Positions 1 through 6,464 of a stretch of DNA of 64,000 nt are shown in pieces; the stretch's first letter is position 1, and every line of letters begins with the position of its first letter. Under the pieces are notes generated by a model that was not told the DNA's origin, did no database searches, and saw nothing but the letters and a program-made list of their open reading frames with translations. The DNA comes from Gemmobacter lanyuensis (GTDB lineage: Bacteria > Pseudomonadota > Alphaproteobacteria > Rhodobacterales > Rhodobacteraceae): NCBI RefSeq assembly GCF_014652355.1, contig NZ_BMYQ01000008.1, positions 1-64,000 on the forward strand. Direction: 5' to 3'. Made by a program: the position numbers and the translations under genes.

Positions 1-70
1 CGCAGACCCACCTTGGCACATCGATGCCGTCGGGGGGCGGTCACATCATCAACGCCTGGGCACCAGCAAC

Positions 71-1925
71 ATGGAGGGCATGGTAGGCGATCTGTCGAAA
101 CAACTCTCCCAATCCGTGGGCAATGCCCTGACACGGGCCAGCGTGTCGCTTAGCGAAGCCACTGACCGTATTGGCCTCATGGTGGATCGGATGGACGGCA
201 GTCAGGCTCAGGCCGGGAACGGCCTGCGGGACGCCGTTGACCAGTTGTCCAAGGCCATGGCCGATATGCGCTCTGAAGTTGCGGCCAGCGGGAGAACTGC
301 CACCGAAGCCATGACCTCCGGCGCGGATCGCCTGCTTTCGGTGATGAACGACACACTGAACGGCATCCGCGAAAACACAGGACAAGGGGCCACTGCGATG
401 CGTAGCGCTGCCGAAGAGATGCGCCGCGCAGCAGAGGGCTTCCGCGAGGCCCTGACCGCTGCCAGCGCAGAAAGCGCTGAGGCCGTGCGGCTCAAAATGG
501 CGGCAAGCTCGGAGGAAGCGGGCAAAGCCATCACCGGAGCGGGGACCGCCTTGTTGGAAAGCTTCAGCAAGACAAGTTCGGACATCTCGGGCCTTGGCGC
601 CCAGGTTGGGGATGGACTGCGGGAGGCCTTGGGACAGATGTCGCAAACCCTAGCAGATCTGAGCGCAAAGGTCACGGCCAGCGGGCAAACTGCGACCGAC
701 ACGATAAACGCGGGCGCAGACCGGTTGCTTTCGGTGATGAACGAGACCCTTTCGGGCATCCGTGACAACACTGGACAGGGCGCAGAAGCAATGCGCGCAG
801 CCGCTGATGAAATGCGCCGTGCGGCGGAAGGCTTCCGCGACACCTTGGCCAACGCCAGCGAGGCCAGCGCAGAAGCCGCGCGCCAAAGGATCGCGGCCAG
901 CACCGAAGAAGCAGGTCAGGCCATCACCGGTGCGGGCCAGTCCCTGCTGGAGAGCTTCAACCAAACCAGTGCCGATATCGCCAAGCTTGGCACAGAAATG
1001 GGCGGGGTCATCGGCGACGAACTCCTGTCGCGTCTGGAAGAGGTAAGCGGGCGCCTTTCGGAATTCGCTGATGCTGTAAAAGAAGGCGCATCGGGCGCGC
1101 AAAAGGCGGCCTTGGGCATGAACACGGGGGCCGATGCCATCAATGGCGCCTCGACCGGGTTCCGTGGAGCAAGTCAGACGCTGACCGCCGCATTCGACCC
1201 AATCCGTGCATCGCAGGAGCGGATCGAGATTACACTGCGCCGAGTTGGAGATCTTGTTGAAACGGTTTCGGAGACCCTGATGCAGAACTCTGCCTCGGTG
1301 GCAGAAAACGCAGCCCACGTGTTGGACACGGCACAAACTGCCTTGGGCACGGAACGCGAAGGGATCCGTCGCAACCTCGAGGCAACCCGCGCCGCGATCG
1401 CACAATTGTCCCAGGAGGCTGCCAAGCTGGATCAGATCGACGCCAGCCGAGGCCAGCCTGGCCTTGGAAACCGCGATCCGCGCCTCGCTGCGGGATGCCC
1501 TTTTCCTCTGCGAACGCGATCCGGCCTTGCGCGCGATCGAAAGCACGGCGCGTCACCTCGGGATCGACCTCGTCGGAGAGGACGAGGATCTGCCGATCCT
1601 CGCCGACAAGATGCTTCGGCTCATGATCGAGCTCAGCGAAGAACGCGAGCGGCGTACGCGTGGCCATTTCTCCGACAACCAGCCCTACCTCGCCCTCGAA
1701 CTTTCGGGCGAAAACACGTCCACCAGCTTTACGAAAACATCCTCAACGGCCCCGCACGCCCCAGCAGGATTGGAACGGAACGCTCCCGCTGAACCGACCC
1801 AAGCCGCGGACCAAACCGCCGCGTCAGACCCCGGCAGATCCGCCGAGCGTCCCTCCAACGAACCGGACGAGGCCGCCCCGGCATTGGTTCAAGCAACCGA
1901 GCCGAGCGATGGTTTCGACGCCTGA
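71..1925 (+). pseudogene. Broken long helical repeat protein (ZorA-tail-like?), frameshifted and 3'-truncated by an IS
   Basis: The reading frame is open from the window edge, so the true start is probably outside; ATG 71 is only the first in-frame Met. Residues 1 to about 455 are Ala/Ser/Glu-rich, low-complexity and helical, with no membrane segment or catalytic motif. Two tandem copies of a 131-residue unit are visible (bases 221-613 and 614-1006), sharing ADRLLSVMN, TGQGA, EMRRAAEGFR and AITGAG. Around base 1448 coding character leaves this frame and continues in the +1 frame (SLALETAIRASLRDALFLCE onward); removing one C near 1448 joins the two as DASEASLALE. The downstream part ends at TGA 1923-1925, which coincides with the end of the IS remnant. 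Long helical tails of this kind occur in ZorA of Zorya defence systems, in tape-measure-like proteins and in other coiled-coil proteins; none can be chosen here because the N-terminus is absent. Confidence 0.6.
221..1006 (+). repeat. Two tandem 393-bp coding repeats
   Basis: Copy 1 (221-613) begins GLRDAVDQ and copy 2 (614-1006) begins GLREALGQ. Unit length is exactly 131 codons in both copies, so the reading frame is kept. Similarity is strongest in the middle (ADRLLSVMN, then an Asn-Thr-Gly-Gln-Gly segment, then EMRRAAEGFR) and near the end (AITGAG, LLESF). This is an internal duplication within one protein. Confidence 0.8.
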
Positions 1926-2351
1926 GCTGCTGCCGGTTTCGTGGACGGCGAGTTCAGCTAGCATAGCGCGGGCCTCGAACTCCATGGGGCTGAGGTAGCC
2001 CAGTTTCGAATGCCGTCTGCGCGGGTTGTAGAAGCGCTCGATGTAATCGAAGACGGCGGCGCGTGCCTCGTCTCGGGTGCGGTAAACCTTCCGTGCCGCC
2101 CGTTTGGTCTTCAGCGATGAGAAGAAGCTCTCCATTTCCGACCTCGCCATGGTCTCTCGGACCAGTGGCGTTCCCATGGCTCGATCCCAGACGTTTCCGG
2201 CCCGGCTCATCAAGCAGGTGATCTCGTTTTCGGCCAGAAGCCGTTGAAACTGCTCGCCTGTGTATTGCGAGCCCTGATCTGAATGATTAAGCAGCGCGTC
2301 AGACTTGCCGCGTCGCCACACGGCCATCATCAGCGCGTCCATCAGCTGCAG
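1923..2351 (-). pseudogene. IS3-type transposase OrfB, C-terminal fragment
   Basis: The minus-strand translation contains DALMMAVWRRGKSDALL, then HSDQGSQYT with the second catalytic Asp, then MESFFSSLKTKRAARKVYRT with the catalytic Glu, and ERFYNPRRRHSKLGYLSP, the hallmark end of the rve integrase core. The first catalytic Asp and the N-terminal helix-turn-helix part are absent. Between NVWD and MESFF there is an extra stretch (RAMGTPLVRETMARSE) where related transposases normally have only two or three residues, so the DDE spacing is altered. The frame runs past the IS end into neighbouring DNA, so no native stop is visible. Confidence 0.75.
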
Positions 2352-2376
2352 CTCGCCCCAGAAACTGGCGGCCATC
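1923..2376 (-). mobile_element. IS3-family insertion sequence remnant (one end only)
   Basis: The left boundary is placed at 1923, where TGAGCTGCTGCCGGTTTCG resembles the terminal inverted repeat of IS3-family elements and where the upstream gene loses its own sequence. Inside lies the C-terminal half of an OrfB transposase on the minus strand. The other IS end, orfA and the N-terminal half of orfB are missing; transposase similarity fades between about 2345 and 2376, just before the tRNA-His terminator. The right boundary is therefore approximate, and the element cannot move by itself. Confidence 0.7.
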
Positions 2377-2384
2377 GCTGGCAC

Positions 2385-2412
2385 AAAAAGCAAAAGGCCC
2401 CTGAAGGGGCCT
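2385..2412 (-). terminator. Rho-independent terminator of tRNA-His
   Basis: Arms 2395-2401 and 2406-2412 (AGGCCCC/GGGGCCT) form a 7-bp GC-rich stem with a 4-base loop. Read on the minus strand it is followed by TTTTGCTTTTTG. It lies about 25 bases after the tRNA 3' end. Confidence 0.85.
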
Positions 2413-2436
2413 ATGCTTTTCCTTATTAAGGAAGGA

Positions 2437-2513
2437 TGGTACCGACTCCCCGGCTCGAACGGGGGACCCCCAGATCCACAATCTGGTGCTCTAACCAACT
2501 GAGCTAAGTCGGC
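2437..2513 (-). tRNA. tRNA-His (anticodon GUG)
   Basis: On the minus strand the sequence folds into a standard 77-nt cloverleaf including an encoded CCA: acceptor GCCGACT/AGTCGGT (with a G1-U72 wobble), D arm GCTC...GAGC, anticodon arm CCAGA-TTGTGGA-TCTGG with anticodon GTG, and T arm CCCCG-TTCGAGC-CGGGG. The base before G1 is T, so no G-1 is encoded, and the discriminator is A73. Most bacteria use G-1:C73 for histidine identity; loss of both is known for alphaproteobacteria and goes with their divergent HisRS. A promoter upstream and a hairpin terminator downstream make it a single-gene unit. Confidence 0.96.
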
Positions 2514-2522
2514 ACTGGCGGC

Positions 2523-2551
2523 GGTTTAGCCCCCCGCTTCGGGGATTGCAA
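2523..2551 (-). promoter_or_regulatory. Promoter of tRNA-His
   Basis: On the minus strand a -35 TTGCAA (2546-2551), a 17-base spacer and a -10 TAAACC (2523-2528) end 9 bases before the mature tRNA 5' end. The spacer contains a small CCCCG/CGGGG hairpin. Confidence 0.6.
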
Positions 2552-2631
2552 GACCCCTCACGCGCTTGCCATCAGGTTTTTTCGGCGCTAGGCCAAAGAT
2601 CAAGAAAAGCATCGGAAATCTGGAGGATGCG

Positions 2632-2844
2632 ATGGGCATCGACAAGCAAAGCGAGATCGCGGCGAACCTGCAAATCGGGCCGACCGATCAGGGCATGGTA
2701 CGAATCTACGTCGAGGCAGAGGGCGGGATCGAGCTGCCGCTCGACTTCGATCCTGATGAGGCCGAAGAGATCGCGGAAGAGCTGCGCGCAGCGGCAGAGG
2801 CCGCCCGCGCCATGGCCGACAGCCGCCCTAAGGGGAAGCGCTGA
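2632..2844 (+). CDS. Small conserved acidic protein (DUF6324-like)
   Basis: This 70-residue protein starts MGIDKQSEIAANLQIGPT and continues with a short beta-rich part (MVRIYVEAEGGIELPLDF) and an acidic, then Ala-rich helix (DPDEAEEIAEELRAAAEAAR). Start 2632 is preferred over upstream codons because GGAGG lies 5 bases before it. It resembles a small family of unknown function found in Rhodobacterales, which I match from memory to DUF6324. No catalytic residues or targeting signal are visible. Its 3' end overlaps the convergent mmcB gene by 17 bases. Confidence 0.7.
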   Translation: MGIDKQSEIAANLQIGPTDQGMVRIYVEAEGGIELPLDFDPDEAEEIAEELRAAAEAARAMADSRPKGKR

Positions 2845-3289
2845 TCCGCGGATCCCGCAGCGCCTGCAGACGCAGCGCCGCATGGCGCGCGAATTTCTGC
2901 ACCATGACCTTGCGACGGGCCGGTGCCAATAGCGTGGCCGGCCCCATCCGCAAAATTTCGGCCCCGTAATCATCGGCCAGGATCAGGCCGGTGTCCTCAG
3001 GCAGGATCTCGGTCGGGAAATTCAGGTCCACCGCCCAGAAGAAGCGGTCACACCATTCCAGATAATTCTGCCATTTACGGTCGGCGGCGAAATCCGCCCG
3101 CCCAGATTTGCATTCGATCACCCAGATCTCGCCCTTAGGGCCAAGCGCCATCACATCGACGCGCAGGCCGGGGCTGGGCACAAGCTCTTCCACGCTGACA
3201 AATCCATGGCCCAGCAGATGCCGACAGACCCCGCGCGCAAGGCGCTGGCCGGGCATCAAAAGGGTTTGGGTCTGATCATCTTCCGCCAT
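2828..3289 (-). CDS. mmcB: MmcB family DNA repair protein
   Basis: A 153-residue protein matching MmcB, a putative PD-(D/E)XK-type nuclease that in Caulobacter is part of the DNA damage response to mitomycin C. The fold signature is visible: RVDVMALGPKGEIWVIECK gives the D...(E)xK catalytic core, followed by SGRADFAADRKWQNYLEWCD and the FPTEILPEDTGLILADDYGA segment typical of the family. The ATG at 3289 gives the family's usual length; longer upstream extensions are low-complexity and unlikely. It is transcribed away from the 6S RNA candidate and converges on the small gene at 2632. Confidence 0.88.
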   Translation of the reverse strand: MAEDDQTQTLLMPGQRLARGVCRHLLGHGFVSVEELVPSPGLRVDVMALGPKGEIWVIECKSGRADFAADRKWQNYLEWCDRFFWAVDLNFPTEILPEDTGLILADDYGAEILRMGPATLLAPARRKVMVQKFARHAALRLQALRDPRISASP

Positions 3290-3340
3290 GACGAAAAAAG
3301 AACACATGGCGAACAAGGTTGCAAGTCCCGCCAAGAACCC

Positions 3341-3369
3341 TTGCAAGGGGCGCAGGCGCGGCCTACCTA
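3341..3369 (+). promoter_or_regulatory. Promoter of the 6S RNA candidate
   Basis: TTGCAA (3341-3346), exactly 17 bases, then TACCTA (3364-3369). Transcription would begin around 3375-3377, where the closing stem of the RNA begins. The -35 hexamer is the same as that of the tRNA-His gene. Confidence 0.55.
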
Positions 3370-3373
3370 GGGG

Positions 3374-3537
3374 GTGGCGGGTGCTGCTCCTCGCGTGTGG
3401 GACACTTTTCCAGTGGCCGATAAGCAAACGAACGGGGGCTGGCTCTGGCAGGATCCTGGTCTTGCTACCTGGCACCCACCTGAGACCTCTGGCTCTCGGG
3501 AAAATCCGTCGCCCACGGTTGCTGCGGGCCCGCCACC
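3374..3537 (+). ncRNA. ssrS: Probable 6S RNA
   Basis: No plausible ORF occupies this interval, yet it has a promoter before it and a terminator after it. The ends pair as a long interrupted rod: GTGGCGGG (3374-3381) with CCCGCCAC (3529-3536), then GTGGG with CCCAC, GAC with GTC, and TTTTCC (3407-3412) with GGAAAA near 3500. Inside comes a large unpaired region and an apical hairpin around CAGGATCCTG. A closing rod, central bubble and apical stem is the architecture of 6S RNA, which binds sigma70 RNA polymerase by mimicking an open promoter. The CTGGCTCTCGGGAAAA segment resembles alphaproteobacterial 6S RNAs as I remember them. The conserved SRP RNA loop is absent. Confidence 0.75.
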
Positions 3538-3545
3538 TACATCTG

Positions 3546-3573
3546 AAAAAGCCCGGCGCTGCCGGGCTTTTGT
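3546..3573 (+). terminator. Bidirectional terminator
   Basis: AAAAGCCCGGC (3547-3557) pairs with GCCGGGCTTTT (3561-3571) around a GCT loop, with U-tracts on both strands. It ends the 6S RNA unit and the convergent membrane-protein gene at 3590-3904. Confidence 0.85.
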
Positions 3574-3589
3574 CATTCGGGGGCCTAGG

Positions 3590-3904
3590 TCAGTGCCGGA
3601 CGCGGCGCGTGGTCTGGGCCTTAGCCTCAACCCGCACCGGGATCAGCGCCGGGGCCCGGGTGCCGCCGTGCGGGCCGTCATCGGTTTGGGCCTGACGCAT
3701 CACCGCAATGGCGAATTGCGCGCCGGCAAACACGACACCATTGCTCACAAACATCATCAGCGCGGCCAGCCAGCCCATTTCGGTTTCCAGAACCAGATGG
3801 CCGAGGTTGGCAATGTCAAACCCGACCAGCAGCGCGACAAAGGCCGCAGACAACCCATACCCAATCGCAACATTGGTGATGTAAAGGCGGACGAGTTTCG
3901 GCAT
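3590..3904 (-). CDS. Small membrane protein of unknown function
   Basis: A 104-residue protein with two clear hydrophobic segments: about residues 8-30 (NVAIGYGLSAAFVALLVGF) and 45-68 (GWLAALMMFVSNGVVFAGAQ), then a hydrophilic C-terminal tail rich in Arg, Thr and Ala. Start 3904 has an ideal AGGAGG 7 bases upstream; the longer reading frame would remove that site. No known enzymatic motif is seen. It sits convergent to the 6S RNA candidate. An inner-membrane protein with an exposed basic tail is all that can be inferred. Confidence 0.75.
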   Translation of the reverse strand: MPKLVRLYITNVAIGYGLSAAFVALLVGFDIANLGHLVLETEMGWLAALMMFVSNGVVFAGAQFAIAVMRQAQTDDGPHGGTRAPALIPVRVEAKAQTTRRVRH

Positions 3905-3961
3905 GGCGATTCCTCCTGTCAATGAGGAAAACCTAGCACTCTGACCGCCGAGGACCAGTGC

Positions 3962-3982
3962 CAAAGCGCCGCACCGCGGCGC
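3962..3982 (-). terminator. Terminator of the rib-nusB-META run
   Basis: GCGCCGC (3966-3972) pairs with GCGGCGC (3976-3982); on the minus strand the stem is followed by TTTGG. It lies just after the stop of the META-domain lipoprotein gene and is the first good terminator after nusB. Confidence 0.55.
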
Positions 3983-3995
3983 ATTCTTGCGCAGG

Positions 3996-4361
3996 TCAGG
4001 GGGTTTTCGGCAAGAATTGGAGCATTTCGCCCCCTGGCCCTTCCAGAACCAGCATCCCTTCTTGCACCTGCGCGCGGGTCACGCGGGACAGGGTTGCAAG
4101 AAAGGCCGTCTCGGCGGCCAGATCCGGGCAGGCCATGCGCGTCGCGCCGATGCCCGACAGCCGGAACGCGGGCAAGGTGCCCTCGACCGTGGCGAACCAG
4201 CGGTTGCAGGGCGCCTGCCCCGCAGCCCGCCCCGGCTCGCGCAGGTCCAGCGTGACGGGCCGCGCGCCCTTGGCCTGCAGAACCCATTCCTGCGCCAAGG
4301 TCGGCCCGTCGGACTGACAGGCGGCCAGCAGGATCAGGCAGGCAAGCAGAGGACGCTTCAT
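3996..4361 (-). CDS. META domain-containing lipoprotein (HslJ-like)
   Basis: A 121-residue protein beginning MKRPLLACLILLAACQSDG: charged start, hydrophobic core and lipobox LAAC, so it is predicted to be processed by signal peptidase II and anchored by Cys15. The mature part has META/HslJ features: a pattern like PCNRWFATVEG, then the IGATRMACP segment near the middle and repeated beta strands. HslJ family proteins are envelope lipoproteins linked to stress or antibiotic tolerance; the substrate is unknown. The gene starts 11 bases after nusB ends, so it is probably the last gene of that transcript. Confidence 0.8.
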   Translation of the reverse strand: MKRPLLACLILLAACQSDGPTLAQEWVLQAKGARPVTLDLREPGRAAGQAPCNRWFATVEGTLPAFRLSGIGATRMACPDLAAETAFLATLSRVTRAQVQEGMLVLEGPGGEMLQFLPKTP

Positions 4362-4372
4362 CGCGATGCCCT

Positions 4373-4843
4373 TCAGGCCGTAAAGGCTTGGGGCTTTTCT
4401 TCGCGGGCCATATGATCGAGCACCGCATTCACGAATTTCGGCTCTTTGCCATCATCGAAGAAGGCCTTGGCCACATCGACGAATTCGTTGATCACCACCT
4501 TGGGCGGGGTGTCCAGCGCCACAAGCTCGGCCCCGGCGGCCCGGAACAGCGCGCGGATCACCGGGTCGATCCGGTCGATCGGCCATTTCGCCACCAATGC
4601 ACGGTCAGTCAGCTGGTCGATCTTGGCCTGCCAGTTCACCGCCTCGGACACGAGGCTGCGGAAATGCTTCAGATCGCCCTCGGCCATTTCGGTGCCATCC
4701 TCGAAAACCTCGCCGAAGCGGTGGCTTTCGAATTCGCGGACGACGCGCTCCACCGTCTGCCCCGAGGTTTCCATCTGGAACAGCGCCTGCGTGGCGAAAT
4801 AGCGCGCGGCGGACCGCATCTGTTTCTTGTCAGCCTTGCTCAT
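4373..4843 (-). CDS. nusB: Transcription antitermination factor NusB
   Basis: A 156-residue all-helical protein with the NusB layout: N-terminal RSAARYFATQALFQMETSG, a central segment ending LTDRALVAKWPIDRIDPVIRA, and the conserved end TPPKVVINEFVDVAKAFFD followed by KFVNAVLDHMAR. NusB with NusE (S10) binds boxA in rRNA leader RNA to prevent premature termination. The ATG at 4843 overlaps the ribH stop as ATGA, which indicates translational coupling and excludes the longer upstream start. The ribH-nusB pair is a widely conserved arrangement. Confidence 0.97.
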   Translation of the reverse strand: MSKADKKQMRSAARYFATQALFQMETSGQTVERVVREFESHRFGEVFEDGTEMAEGDLKHFRSLVSEAVNWQAKIDQLTDRALVAKWPIDRIDPVIRALFRAAGAELVALDTPPKVVINEFVDVAKAFFDDGKEPKFVNAVLDHMAREEKPQAFTA

Positions 4844-5358
4844 GCGGACATTCCCCCTTCGGGACGAAAGCCCATGCCGCCGCGGCTGCCGGACCATTTA
4901 TGCGAAAGCGCGATCAGATGCAGCGCCGCCGCCGCTGCCCCGCCGCCCTTGTTCTGGCCCGCAACCTCGGCGCGGACCTCGGCCTGATGGCGGTTTTCCA
5001 CCGTCAGGATGCCATTGCCGATGCAGGCGCCCTGCAATCCCAGCAGCGTGATCGCGCGGCTGGAGTCATTGCAGACCGTATCGTAATGGGTGGTTTCACC
5101 GCGGATCACGCAGCCAAGCGCGACATAGCCGTCATATTCGGCCATGCGTTCGGCCATGGCGATGGCGGTCGGAATCTCCAGCGCGCCCGGCACCTCGATC
5201 ACCTCGGCCTCGGCGCCGCAATCGGCAGCCACGGCCTTGGCCCCGGCGACCAGTGCATCCGCGATATCCTTGTAATAGGGCGATACCACGATCAGCAGCT
5301 TTACAGGCCGGTCAAAGCGCGGCAGCGGCAAAGTGTAATGTGTTTCGTTCGCAGCCAT
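4840..5358 (-). CDS. ribH: 6,7-dimethyl-8-ribityllumazine synthase
   Basis: A 172-residue lumazine synthase, the penultimate enzyme of riboflavin synthesis, condensing 5-amino-6-ribitylaminouracil with 3,4-dihydroxybutanone 4-phosphate. Signatures: VVSPYYKDIADALVAGA (substrate pocket), VPGALEIPTAIA, ALGCVIRGETTHYDTVCND with the catalytic-region His, and GILTVENRHQAEVRA. The C-terminal 25 residues (SGSRGGMGFRPEGGMSA) are a Gly-rich extension. It starts two bases after the ribB stop and overlaps nusB by four bases, forming a tight ribB-ribH-nusB unit. Confidence 0.97.
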   Translation of the reverse strand: MAANETHYTLPLPRFDRPVKLLIVVSPYYKDIADALVAGAKAVAADCGAEAEVIEVPGALEIPTAIAMAERMAEYDGYVALGCVIRGETTHYDTVCNDSSRAITLLGLQGACIGNGILTVENRHQAEVRAEVAGQNKGGGAAAAALHLIALSHKWSGSRGGMGFRPEGGMSA

Positions 5359-5360
5359 GG

Positions 5361-6464
5361 TCAGTCCTTGATCGGGCGGGTTCCGGCGATCGAAAGACCA
5401 TAGGCCTCAAGACCCACAACCTTCGGTGCCTGGTGATTGGTGACAAGCGTGATCTGCCGCAGACCGAGCGCGGCAAGAATCTGTGCCCCCAGCCCATACT
5501 GGCGCAGCGTCTGCGGCGCAACCTCTGCCCCGTCGATCAGTTTCATCGAGGTGTCGCGCAGCAGCACGACCACGCCGCGCCCTTCGGCCGCGATCAGGCG
5601 CATCGCCCCCGACAGCTCGCCCGCGCTGGTGGAATCGCCGATCCCCAGCACATCGGCCAGCGGGTCCATCGCATGCATCCGCACCAGAACCGGCTCGCCC
5701 GAGGCGATGTCGCCCTTGGTCAGCACAACATGTTCGCCGCCCTGCGCCACGTCCGAAAAGATCCGCATGACCCAATCGCCGCCGTGGATCGAGGTCACGC
5801 GCTTCACCGCGCGTTCGCGCACCAGATTGTCATGGCGGCGGCGATAGGCGATCAGATCGGAAATCGTGCCGATCTTCATGTTATGGCGCTGCGCGAACTG
5901 GATCAGGTCGGGCAGACGGGCCATGGTGCCGTCATCATTCATGATTTCGCAGATCACGCCCGCGGGCTTCAACCCGGCCAGACGCGAAATGTCGGTCGCG
6001 GCCTCGGTATGGCCTGCGCGCACCAGCACCCCCCCGTCACGCGCCCGCAGCGGGAAGATATGGCCGGGCGTCGCAATGTCCTGCGGGCCAGTCTTGTCAT
6101 CAATGGCCACGGCCACGGTGCGCGCGCGGTCGGCGGCGGAAATCCCGGTTTCCACCCCTTCCCGCGCCTCGATGGAAACGGTGAAGGCGGTCTCATGCCG
6201 CGAGGAGTTCTTCGAGGCCATGAGCGGCAGGCCCAGCTGGTCGATCCGCTCGCTCGACAGCGTCAGGCAAATCAGACCGCGGCCATGCGTGGCCATGAAG
6301 TTGATCGCCGCCGCGTCGCACATTTCCGCCGGGATCACGAGATCCCCTTCATTCTCGCGGTCCTCATGATCCACGAGAATGAACATCTTGCCCTTCCGGG
6401 CGTCCTCGATGATCTCCTCTACCGAGGAGATGGCGTCGGAAAAATCGCTCTTCGACTGGCTCAT
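5361..6464 (-). CDS. ribB: 3,4-dihydroxy-2-butanone-4-phosphate synthase with a degenerate RibA-like C-terminal domain
   Basis: A 367-residue two-domain protein. Residues about 10-210 are the RibB domain with DHEDRENEGDLV, THGRGLIC, SSRHETAFTVS and RAGHTEAA, all at metal and substrate positions, so conversion of ribulose 5-phosphate to the riboflavin precursor is well supported. Residues about 215-365 align with GTP cyclohydrolase II, but the zinc-binding three-Cys motif is missing: the equivalent segment reads VRMHAMDPLADVLGIGDS. The RibA half is thus very probably inactive, and a separate RibA must exist elsewhere. It is followed by ribH two bases later. A nested inverted repeat sits just upstream. 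Confidence 0.93.
   Translation of the reverse strand: MSQSKSDFSDAISSVEEIIEDARKGKMFILVDHEDRENEGDLVIPAEMCDAAAINFMATHGRGLICLTLSSERIDQLGLPLMASKNSSRHETAFTVSIEAREGVETGISAADRARTVAVAIDDKTGPQDIATPGHIFPLRARDGGVLVRAGHTEAATDISRLAGLKPAGVICEIMNDDGTMARLPDLIQFAQRHNMKIGTISDLIAYRRRHDNLVRERAVKRVTSIHGGDWVMRIFSDVAQGGEHVVLTKGDIASGEPVLVRMHAMDPLADVLGIGDSTSAGELSGAMRLIAAEGRGVVVLLRDTSMKLIDGAEVAPQTLRQYGLGAQILAALGLRQITLVTNHQAPKVVGLEAYGLSIAGTRPIKD

What the first reader, a model, noticed from the sequence alone, without database searches (positions are those of the whole stretch)
71..1925. Frameshifted long helical protein with a 131-residue tandem duplication at an accessory boundary
The coding signal switches frame once near 1448; removing a single C restores one continuous protein. 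Two exact-length 393-bp repeats have kept frame, so the unit was under protein-level selection before decay. Composition and repeats resemble the long cytoplasmic tail of ZorA in Zorya anti-phage systems, but the MotA-like N-terminus would be outside the window and no ZorB follows. It may be the decayed edge of a defence island.
Basis: partly seen in the sequence, partly recalled or inferred. Interest (0 to 1): 0.6.

Follow-up and report, generated by a model that had tools for sequence, protein, structure and literature searches.

The report
Broken Zorya motor-tail gene with duplication
This is the leftover middle of a gene for the long tail of a bacterial anti-phage motor protein (ZorA), cut on both sides by mobile DNA; it is dead here, but it records an old doubling of part of the tail that none of the intact relatives examined has.

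Summary
The repeat is real and the ZorA guess is right, but the 'single-base frameshift' is not. Bases 57-1441 encode 461 residues of the tail of a type I Zorya ZorA (PADLOC PDLC00600, 466 bits), 76-81% identical over the aligned columns to intact 686-residue ZorA proteins of Ruegeria, Shimia and Yoonia, with a profile-confirmed zorBCD behind in Ruegeria. The motor half is cut off by the end of an IS110-family element (bases 1-56). The true C-terminus is missing: ZorA homology stops at 1441, and the frame that takes over (1442-1922) is a piece of a tyrosine-recombinase integrase, itself cut by an IS3-type element. It is a scar of fused fragments beside tRNA-His; neither ZorB nor the ZorA N-terminus was found in the assembly. 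The 393-bp units (215-607, 608-1000) are 64% identical in protein, with changes concentrated at third codon positions, so both were long under protein-level selection. None of 14 distinct intact ZorA examined has the doubling, so the parent protein (about 817 residues, inferred) is a lengthened variant of a known kind. Modest interest: a natural tail-length experiment, seen only as a fossil.

The parts
1..56 (-). end of an IS110-family insertion element (its transposase would read leftwards, outside the contig)
   Evidence: 56 bases identical to a transposase-bearing copy on contig C11 and to the ends of contigs C32 and C9; the C11 transposase hits PF02371 and PF01548
57..1441 (+). zorA (Zorya type I) fragment: cytoplasmic tail only, N-terminal motor half and C-terminus missing
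   Evidence: PDLC00600 ZorA1 5e-140 / 466 bits; 81, 80 and 76% identity to ZorA of L012, L013, L014
215..607 (+). repeat unit 1 (131 codons)
   Evidence: 64.1% aa identity to unit 2, dN 0.23, dS about 1.4
608..1000 (+). repeat unit 2 (131 codons)
1442..1922 (+). internal fragment of a tyrosine-recombinase integrase gene (DUF6538-type N-terminus in relatives), joined directly to zorA in another frame
   Evidence: 60% identity to residues 122-207 of L031 (window 1446-1703) and 50% to residues 103-219 of L032 (1446-1811); both carry PF00589, and PF20172 clearly in L032, under the cut-off in L031; hits at E 0.001 in 30 of 393 other family genomes, many weak
1923..2374 (-). IS3-type element fragment (C-terminal part of the rve transposase); its first bases TGA supply the stop of the integrase frame
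   Evidence: PF13333 1.7e-14, PF00665, PF13683; bases 1921-2002 match contig C4 at 87%; right edge set by eye, somewhere in 2374-2430
2437..2513 (-). tRNA-His (GTG), where DNA conserved in the genus begins
   Evidence: ARAGORN; window 2374-2900 matches in 9 of the 10 other genomes of the genus, the matches starting at 2430 or to its right

Best explanation
A type I Zorya system was once carried on accessory DNA in this lineage. Its ZorA had a tail lengthened by an in-frame tandem duplication of 131 residues; both copies then evolved under protein-level selection while the system worked. Later an IS110-family element landed in zorA, the rest of the operon was lost, a deletion or rearrangement fused the tail piece to a piece of an integrase gene, and an IS3-type element cut that piece and was itself truncated beside tRNA-His. 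Shown: each fragment's identity, the joints at 56/57, about 1441 and 1922/1923, the repeat, the codon-position bias, and that searches of the assembly find neither ZorB nor the ZorA motor half. Inferred: that the parent system was functional, its length of about 817 residues, the order of events, and that the extra unit lengthened the five-helix cytoplasmic rod. The working parent would have acted as proposed for other Zorya I systems: a ZorA5B2 inner-membrane ion-driven motor that senses envelope damage and, through the ZorA rod, recruits ZorC and ZorD against phage DNA. The relic itself most likely does nothing.
For: PADLOC ZorA1 466 bits. zorA-zorB-zorC-zorD in L012 with ZorA1 860, ZorB1 384, ZorC1 541 and ZorD1 1276 bits; the same layout by ORF length in L013, and in L014 except that its zorB frame is only 230 codons. 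ZorA homology ends at 1441, integrase homology starts at 1446. IS110 end at 1-56. No ZorA N-terminal half in the own genome (profile positions 1-289 unmatched); ZorB query finds only three weak matches in its OmpA region; ZorD query finds only matches in its helicase region, 32-53% identical. Codon-position bias: 71 of 131 third positions against 50 of 262 others, p = 2.7e-12. Repeat absent from 14 of 14 distinct intact ZorA examined. The ZorA tail is needed for defence in tested systems (PMC11890865, passages).
Against: dS between the units is near saturation, so the age of the doubling and the strength of selection are rough. A tree of the units does not resolve whether the two copies are each other's nearest kin (AU p 0.288), and the units differ more from each other (64%) than unit 2 does from L012 (76%), which a simple recent doubling would not give. 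Assembly gaps at IS copies could hide missing parts of the operon; ZorC was not searched in the own genome. The NCBIfam ZorA_1 model gives only 31 bits, below its cut-off of 190. No reads were available to check the joints.
Confidence: 0.9

Rival explanations
1. A single protein broken by one base near 1448 (sequencing error or recent frameshift).
For: Both sides are open in their own frames and the switch is sharp.
Against: The right-hand side matches integrases, not ZorA; the ZorA C-terminus is not found in window 1-6000; ZorA continues differently in the relatives aligned.
Confidence: 0.02
2. The two-unit tail is ancestral and the single-unit relatives lost one unit by recombination between copies; their unit would then be a hybrid of unit 1 (start) and unit 2 (end).
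For: The first 35 residues of L012's unit are nearer unit 1 (69% against 51%) and the last 96 nearer unit 2 (85% against 68%); the window units differ from each other more than unit 2 does from L012; a sister pair of units is not demanded by the tree.
Against: All 12 distinct standard-length ZorA examined, including the divergent ones at 34-61% identity to L012, have one unit, so several losses or a gain and a later loss would be needed; faster change in the inner halves of a doubled tail explains the pattern too.
Confidence: 0.15
3. The joints are assembly artefacts: fragments from different places were merged at the end of a repeat-bounded contig.
For: The window starts at the end of contig C8 and at an IS copy shared by several contigs.
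Against: The joint at 1441 is not in a repeat of this genome: the zorA piece and the integrase piece each give one match in it.
Confidence: 0.06
4. The 573-codon frame from ATG 71 is still expressed and does something, for instance as a free coiled coil.
For: The frame is open from 71 to 1792.
Against: It lacks the membrane motor, its last part is integrase DNA read in a frame other than the integrase's own, and it begins inside zorA behind an IS end.
Confidence: 0.03

Closest known systems
Zorya type I ZorA of Rhodobacterales (L012 Ruegeria sp. XHP0148, L013 Shimia thalassica, L014 Yoonia maritima; PADLOC PDLC00600)
   Same: 76-81% identity over the aligned tail columns, same order of tail segments
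   Different: these relatives have one 131-residue unit, a motor half, a C-terminus and further zor genes behind; the window has two units and none of the rest
Short-tailed Zorya type I ZorA (PADLOC PDLC00595; G575 and G617, 481 residues)
   Same: type I ZorA in a zorABCD order, and a natural difference of tail length
   Different: shorter by about 200 residues instead of longer by 131
Tyrosine-recombinase integrases beside tRNA-Asn (L031, L032)
   Same: bases 1446-1811 encode part of the same protein
   Different: only an internal fragment, beside tRNA-His instead of tRNA-Asn

Membership tests
Zorya type I (ZorA) | ZorA sequence profile | tested here: met
   PDLC00600 5e-140, 466 bits, best stretch to profile 341-621 of 677; second stretch 290-472 in the six-frame search. 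NCBIfam ZorA_1 only 31 bits, below its cut-off 190
Zorya type I (ZorA) | MotA/ExbB/TolQ-like membrane motor half | tested here: not met
   profile positions 1-289 unmatched in the own genome
Zorya type I (system) | zorB | tested here: not met
   three weak matches in the OmpA region only, best E 8.6e-6
Zorya type I (system) | zorD | tested here: not met
   four matches in the helicase region only, best 37% over residues 635-955
Zorya type I (system) | zorC | not tested
   none beside the relic by position (bases 1442-2513 are accounted for), but not searched genome-wide
Zorya type I (ZorA) | tail of the standard length of its subfamily (size conserved within a family, PMC11890865) | tested here: not met
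   131 extra residues; 0 of 14 distinct intact relatives have them
tyrosine-recombinase integrase | catalytic domain PF00589 | tested here: not met
   the fragment 1442-1922 matches only residues 103-219 of L032 and 122-207 of L031, before the domain at about 490-660

The most novel reading that the evidence does not exclude
The tail length of Zorya type I motors changes in nature by whole in-frame blocks, and a working ZorA with a tail about 30% longer (two 131-residue units; tail taken as the last 440 or so residues) existed and was kept by selection, so the rod's reach or twist is tunable rather than fixed.
Probability: 0.5. Interest if true: 0.45.

Novelty: new variant of a known kind. Interest (0 to 1): 0.3.

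Why it matters
The ZorA tail is needed for defence, and the published structural work describes component size as well conserved within each Zorya family (PMC11890865, passages). A natural tail lengthened by a selected in-frame doubling, together with natural 481-residue ZorA proteins in operons with zorB, zorC and zorD, gives a ready-made length series for asking how the rod transmits the signal. As found here it is a dead fragment, so the value is as a pointer, not a system.

Tried and rejected
Pfam hits on the ZorA piece (apolipoprotein and other helical families, 14, all under their cut-offs) are composition matches. PHROGs gave only weak hits for the ZorA piece and none for the second piece; PADLOC and NCBIfam gave none for the second piece; plasmids and phages gave nothing for the second piece. 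Plasmids gave two Zymomonas ZorA-like proteins at about 31% for the first, not studied further. Viral contigs gave no relative. A model of the 457 residues from 4 sequences was nearly all helix but of very low confidence (mean pLDDT 47), and I draw nothing from it. A search of solved structures with L012 ZorA gave only two chemoreceptor sequences. Whether 131 residues keeps the hydrophobic stripe in phase was looked at: lag 131 is a weak local peak in the averaged autocorrelation (0.057), too weak to use. I first took the 35-bp second match to the tRNA-His end in G005 for an island att site and dropped that: it is a CRISPR spacer. The integrase's other half is not in the 2279 bases around tRNA-Asn at the end of contig C21 in the own genome. 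An integrase in G104 (L033) looked as if it broke at the same place; reading by eye it is a frameshifted copy, so no shared joint. The register of the unit comparison with the relatives was wrong; one search replaces it. Literature: searches listed 11 and 9 papers; passages of two were seen, on tail length, listed 10 of 1,373 papers, none on ZorA by title. The Zorya structure paper with DOI 10.1038/s41586-024-08493-8 (known by recall) is not held, so I cannot say that a doubled tail is not in print.

Full report
What is there. The window is the first 64 kb of contig C8 of a 4.03-Mb genome in 51 contigs. Its first 56 bases are identical to the end of an IS110-family element that is present with its transposase on contig C11 and that also ends contigs C32 and C9 (transposase PF02371 and PF01548). 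From base 57 the DNA encodes ZorA: the frame starts with GTSNMEG, as in intact ZorA, and the frame 71-1441 scores 466 bits against the ZorA1 model PDLC00600. The own-genome search places this copy at profile positions 290-625 of 677, so the motor half is missing. That search also rang in 2 of 14 control genomes at its loose threshold; at 1e-10 it rang in none, and the window's score is far beyond either threshold. NCBIfam's ZorA_1 model gives only 31 bits, under its cut-off, and Pfam gives no MotA-type hit even for the intact ZorA of L012, so the family call rests on PADLOC and on the alignment with relatives.

Relatives. Three named genomes hold close relatives. All three have a 686-residue ZorA. 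In L012 the three genes behind it were confirmed as zorB, zorC and zorD with PADLOC; in L013 the ORFs have the same sizes; in L014 they do too except that the zorB frame is only 230 codons, so that copy may be broken. Over the aligned columns the window is 81, 80 and 76% identical to them. In the genus, 1 of 11 genomes searched has the ZorA tail, namely this one. In the family, 11 of 394 had a match at E 0.001 including this one, several of them weak. In the order, 14 of 390 had a match to PDLC00600 at 1e-10 including this one.

The 'frameshift'. ZorA homology ends at LDQID (1441). Intact ZorA goes on for some 58 residues; the last 46 of L012's give no match in window 1-6000 (tblastn, best E 7). 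The frame that takes over has matches at E 0.001 in 30 of 393 other family genomes, most of them weak. The two best relatives tested, L031 and L032, have open frames of 757 and 733 codons with a tyrosine-recombinase domain (PF00589) and an N-terminal DUF6538 match, clear in L032 and under the cut-off in L031. The window piece covers residues 122-207 of L031 or 103-219 of L032. It is cut at 1922 by an IS3-type element whose first bases, TGA, act as the stop. That element is itself cut, somewhere in 2374-2430, beside tRNA-His. The apparent frameshift is therefore a joint between two gene fragments.

The repeat. Two tandem units of 131 codons lie at 215-607 and 608-1000. They share 64.1% of residues; dN is 0.23 and dS about 1.4. 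Differences fall at codon positions 1, 2 and 3 in 35, 15 and 71 of 131 codons (third against the other two, p = 2.7e-12). This pattern needs long selection on the protein. I compared 22 locus rows: 12 distinct intact ZorA of standard length, 2 distinct intact short-tailed ones, 2 partial ones, and repeat listings of the same places. None of the 14 intact proteins has the doubling (self-match at most 87, against 447 in the window). L020-L024 (weaker hits) and the Zymomonas plasmid proteins were not examined for it. In a tree of the units both window copies fall among the close relatives, away from the divergent L018, L050, L051 and L058, but 9 of 11 inner branches are unresolved, and a sister pair is neither shown nor rejected (p-AU 0.288). 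Unit 1 has the longer end branch (0.31 against 0.20). The doubling is most simply a gain in this lineage; loss in the relatives is the main rival, and the hybrid look of L012's unit speaks for it.

Length in context. The parent ZorA would have had about 817 residues (686 + 131, inferred). The nine ZorA1 models that matched are 487-727 positions long; type III models there reach 1063. Two genomes, G575 and G617, have a ZorA of 481 residues with ORFs of zorB, zorC and zorD size behind it; the four proteins of G575 were confirmed with PADLOC, those of G617 were read from ORF sizes. So ZorA length does vary in nature within type I, and the window adds a variant on the long side. In PMC11890865 (abstract and passages seen) ZorA and ZorB form a 5:2 motor with a rod-like cytoplasmic tail made of the five ZorA C-termini; removing or mutating the tail abolishes defence, and component size is described as well conserved within each family.

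Where it came from. Integrases of this kind lie in one 3-kb locus with tRNA-Asn (GTT) in 12 of the 13 integrase loci scanned (7 further integrase loci were not scanned). In G398 an integrase of this wider family and a Zorya locus with a 686-residue ZorA sit on one contig about 38 kb apart, and in G341 about 26 kb apart. Both integrases are only distant relatives of the window's piece (29 and 34%), and G398's did not match the window by tblastn. So the two fragments may come from one kind of island; that they shared one here is a guess. In this genome the only tRNA-Asn hit is near the end of contig C21, with no integrase piece beside it. A 775-codon gene that flanks tRNA-His in at least 3 of the 8 loci pulled from the genus (tex by recall) lies on contig C1 here, so the chromosome is rearranged at this very point. 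The rest of the operon is not found: no ZorA motor half, no ZorB beyond weak OmpA-region matches, no ZorD beyond helicase-region matches. ZorC was not searched genome-wide, and IS-bounded assembly gaps remain.

Verdict. The one point worth keeping is the selected in-frame doubling of the tail.

Noticed in passing
L084:1501-1535 (G005, same genus): A CRISPR array with repeats like GTTTCGATCCACGCCCCCGGGTGGGGGCGAC holds a spacer matching the 3' end of tRNA-His over 35 bases with one mismatch (97%), as if acquired from an element that uses this tRNA end as attachment site.
   Followed up: partly
L104:679-7668 and L105:703-7692 (G575, G617): Zorya type I operons with a ZorA of only 481 residues (PDLC00595 in G575), about 200 residues shorter than the Rhodobacterales standard.
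   Followed up: partly
L106:1009-3282 and L107:8591-16215 (G398:C32): An integrase beside tRNA-Asn and, about 38 kb away on the same contig, a Zorya locus with a 686-residue ZorA and ORFs of zorB and zorD size; the zorC frame was hidden by my ORF filter.
   Followed up: partly
L012:16738-17607, also L013:16747-17610, L014:16622-17506, L107:16240-17109: A 287-294-residue protein with a conserved start (RGLII..PWIGHIL.G.K.WEMRSQATS) follows zorD in these four loci; Pfam gives no match over its cut-off for L012's copy. It may be a regular fifth gene of this Zorya branch.
   Followed up: no
L014:11152-11844: The zorB frame of Yoonia maritima is only 230 codons, against 371 in L012 and L013, so it may be broken.
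   Followed up: no
window:2566-2844: A 92-codon gene next to tRNA-His matches PF19849 (DUF6324) at 1.4e-34.
   Followed up: no
L033:1471-2049 (G104): A copy of the same integrase family that looks frameshifted.
   Followed up: partly
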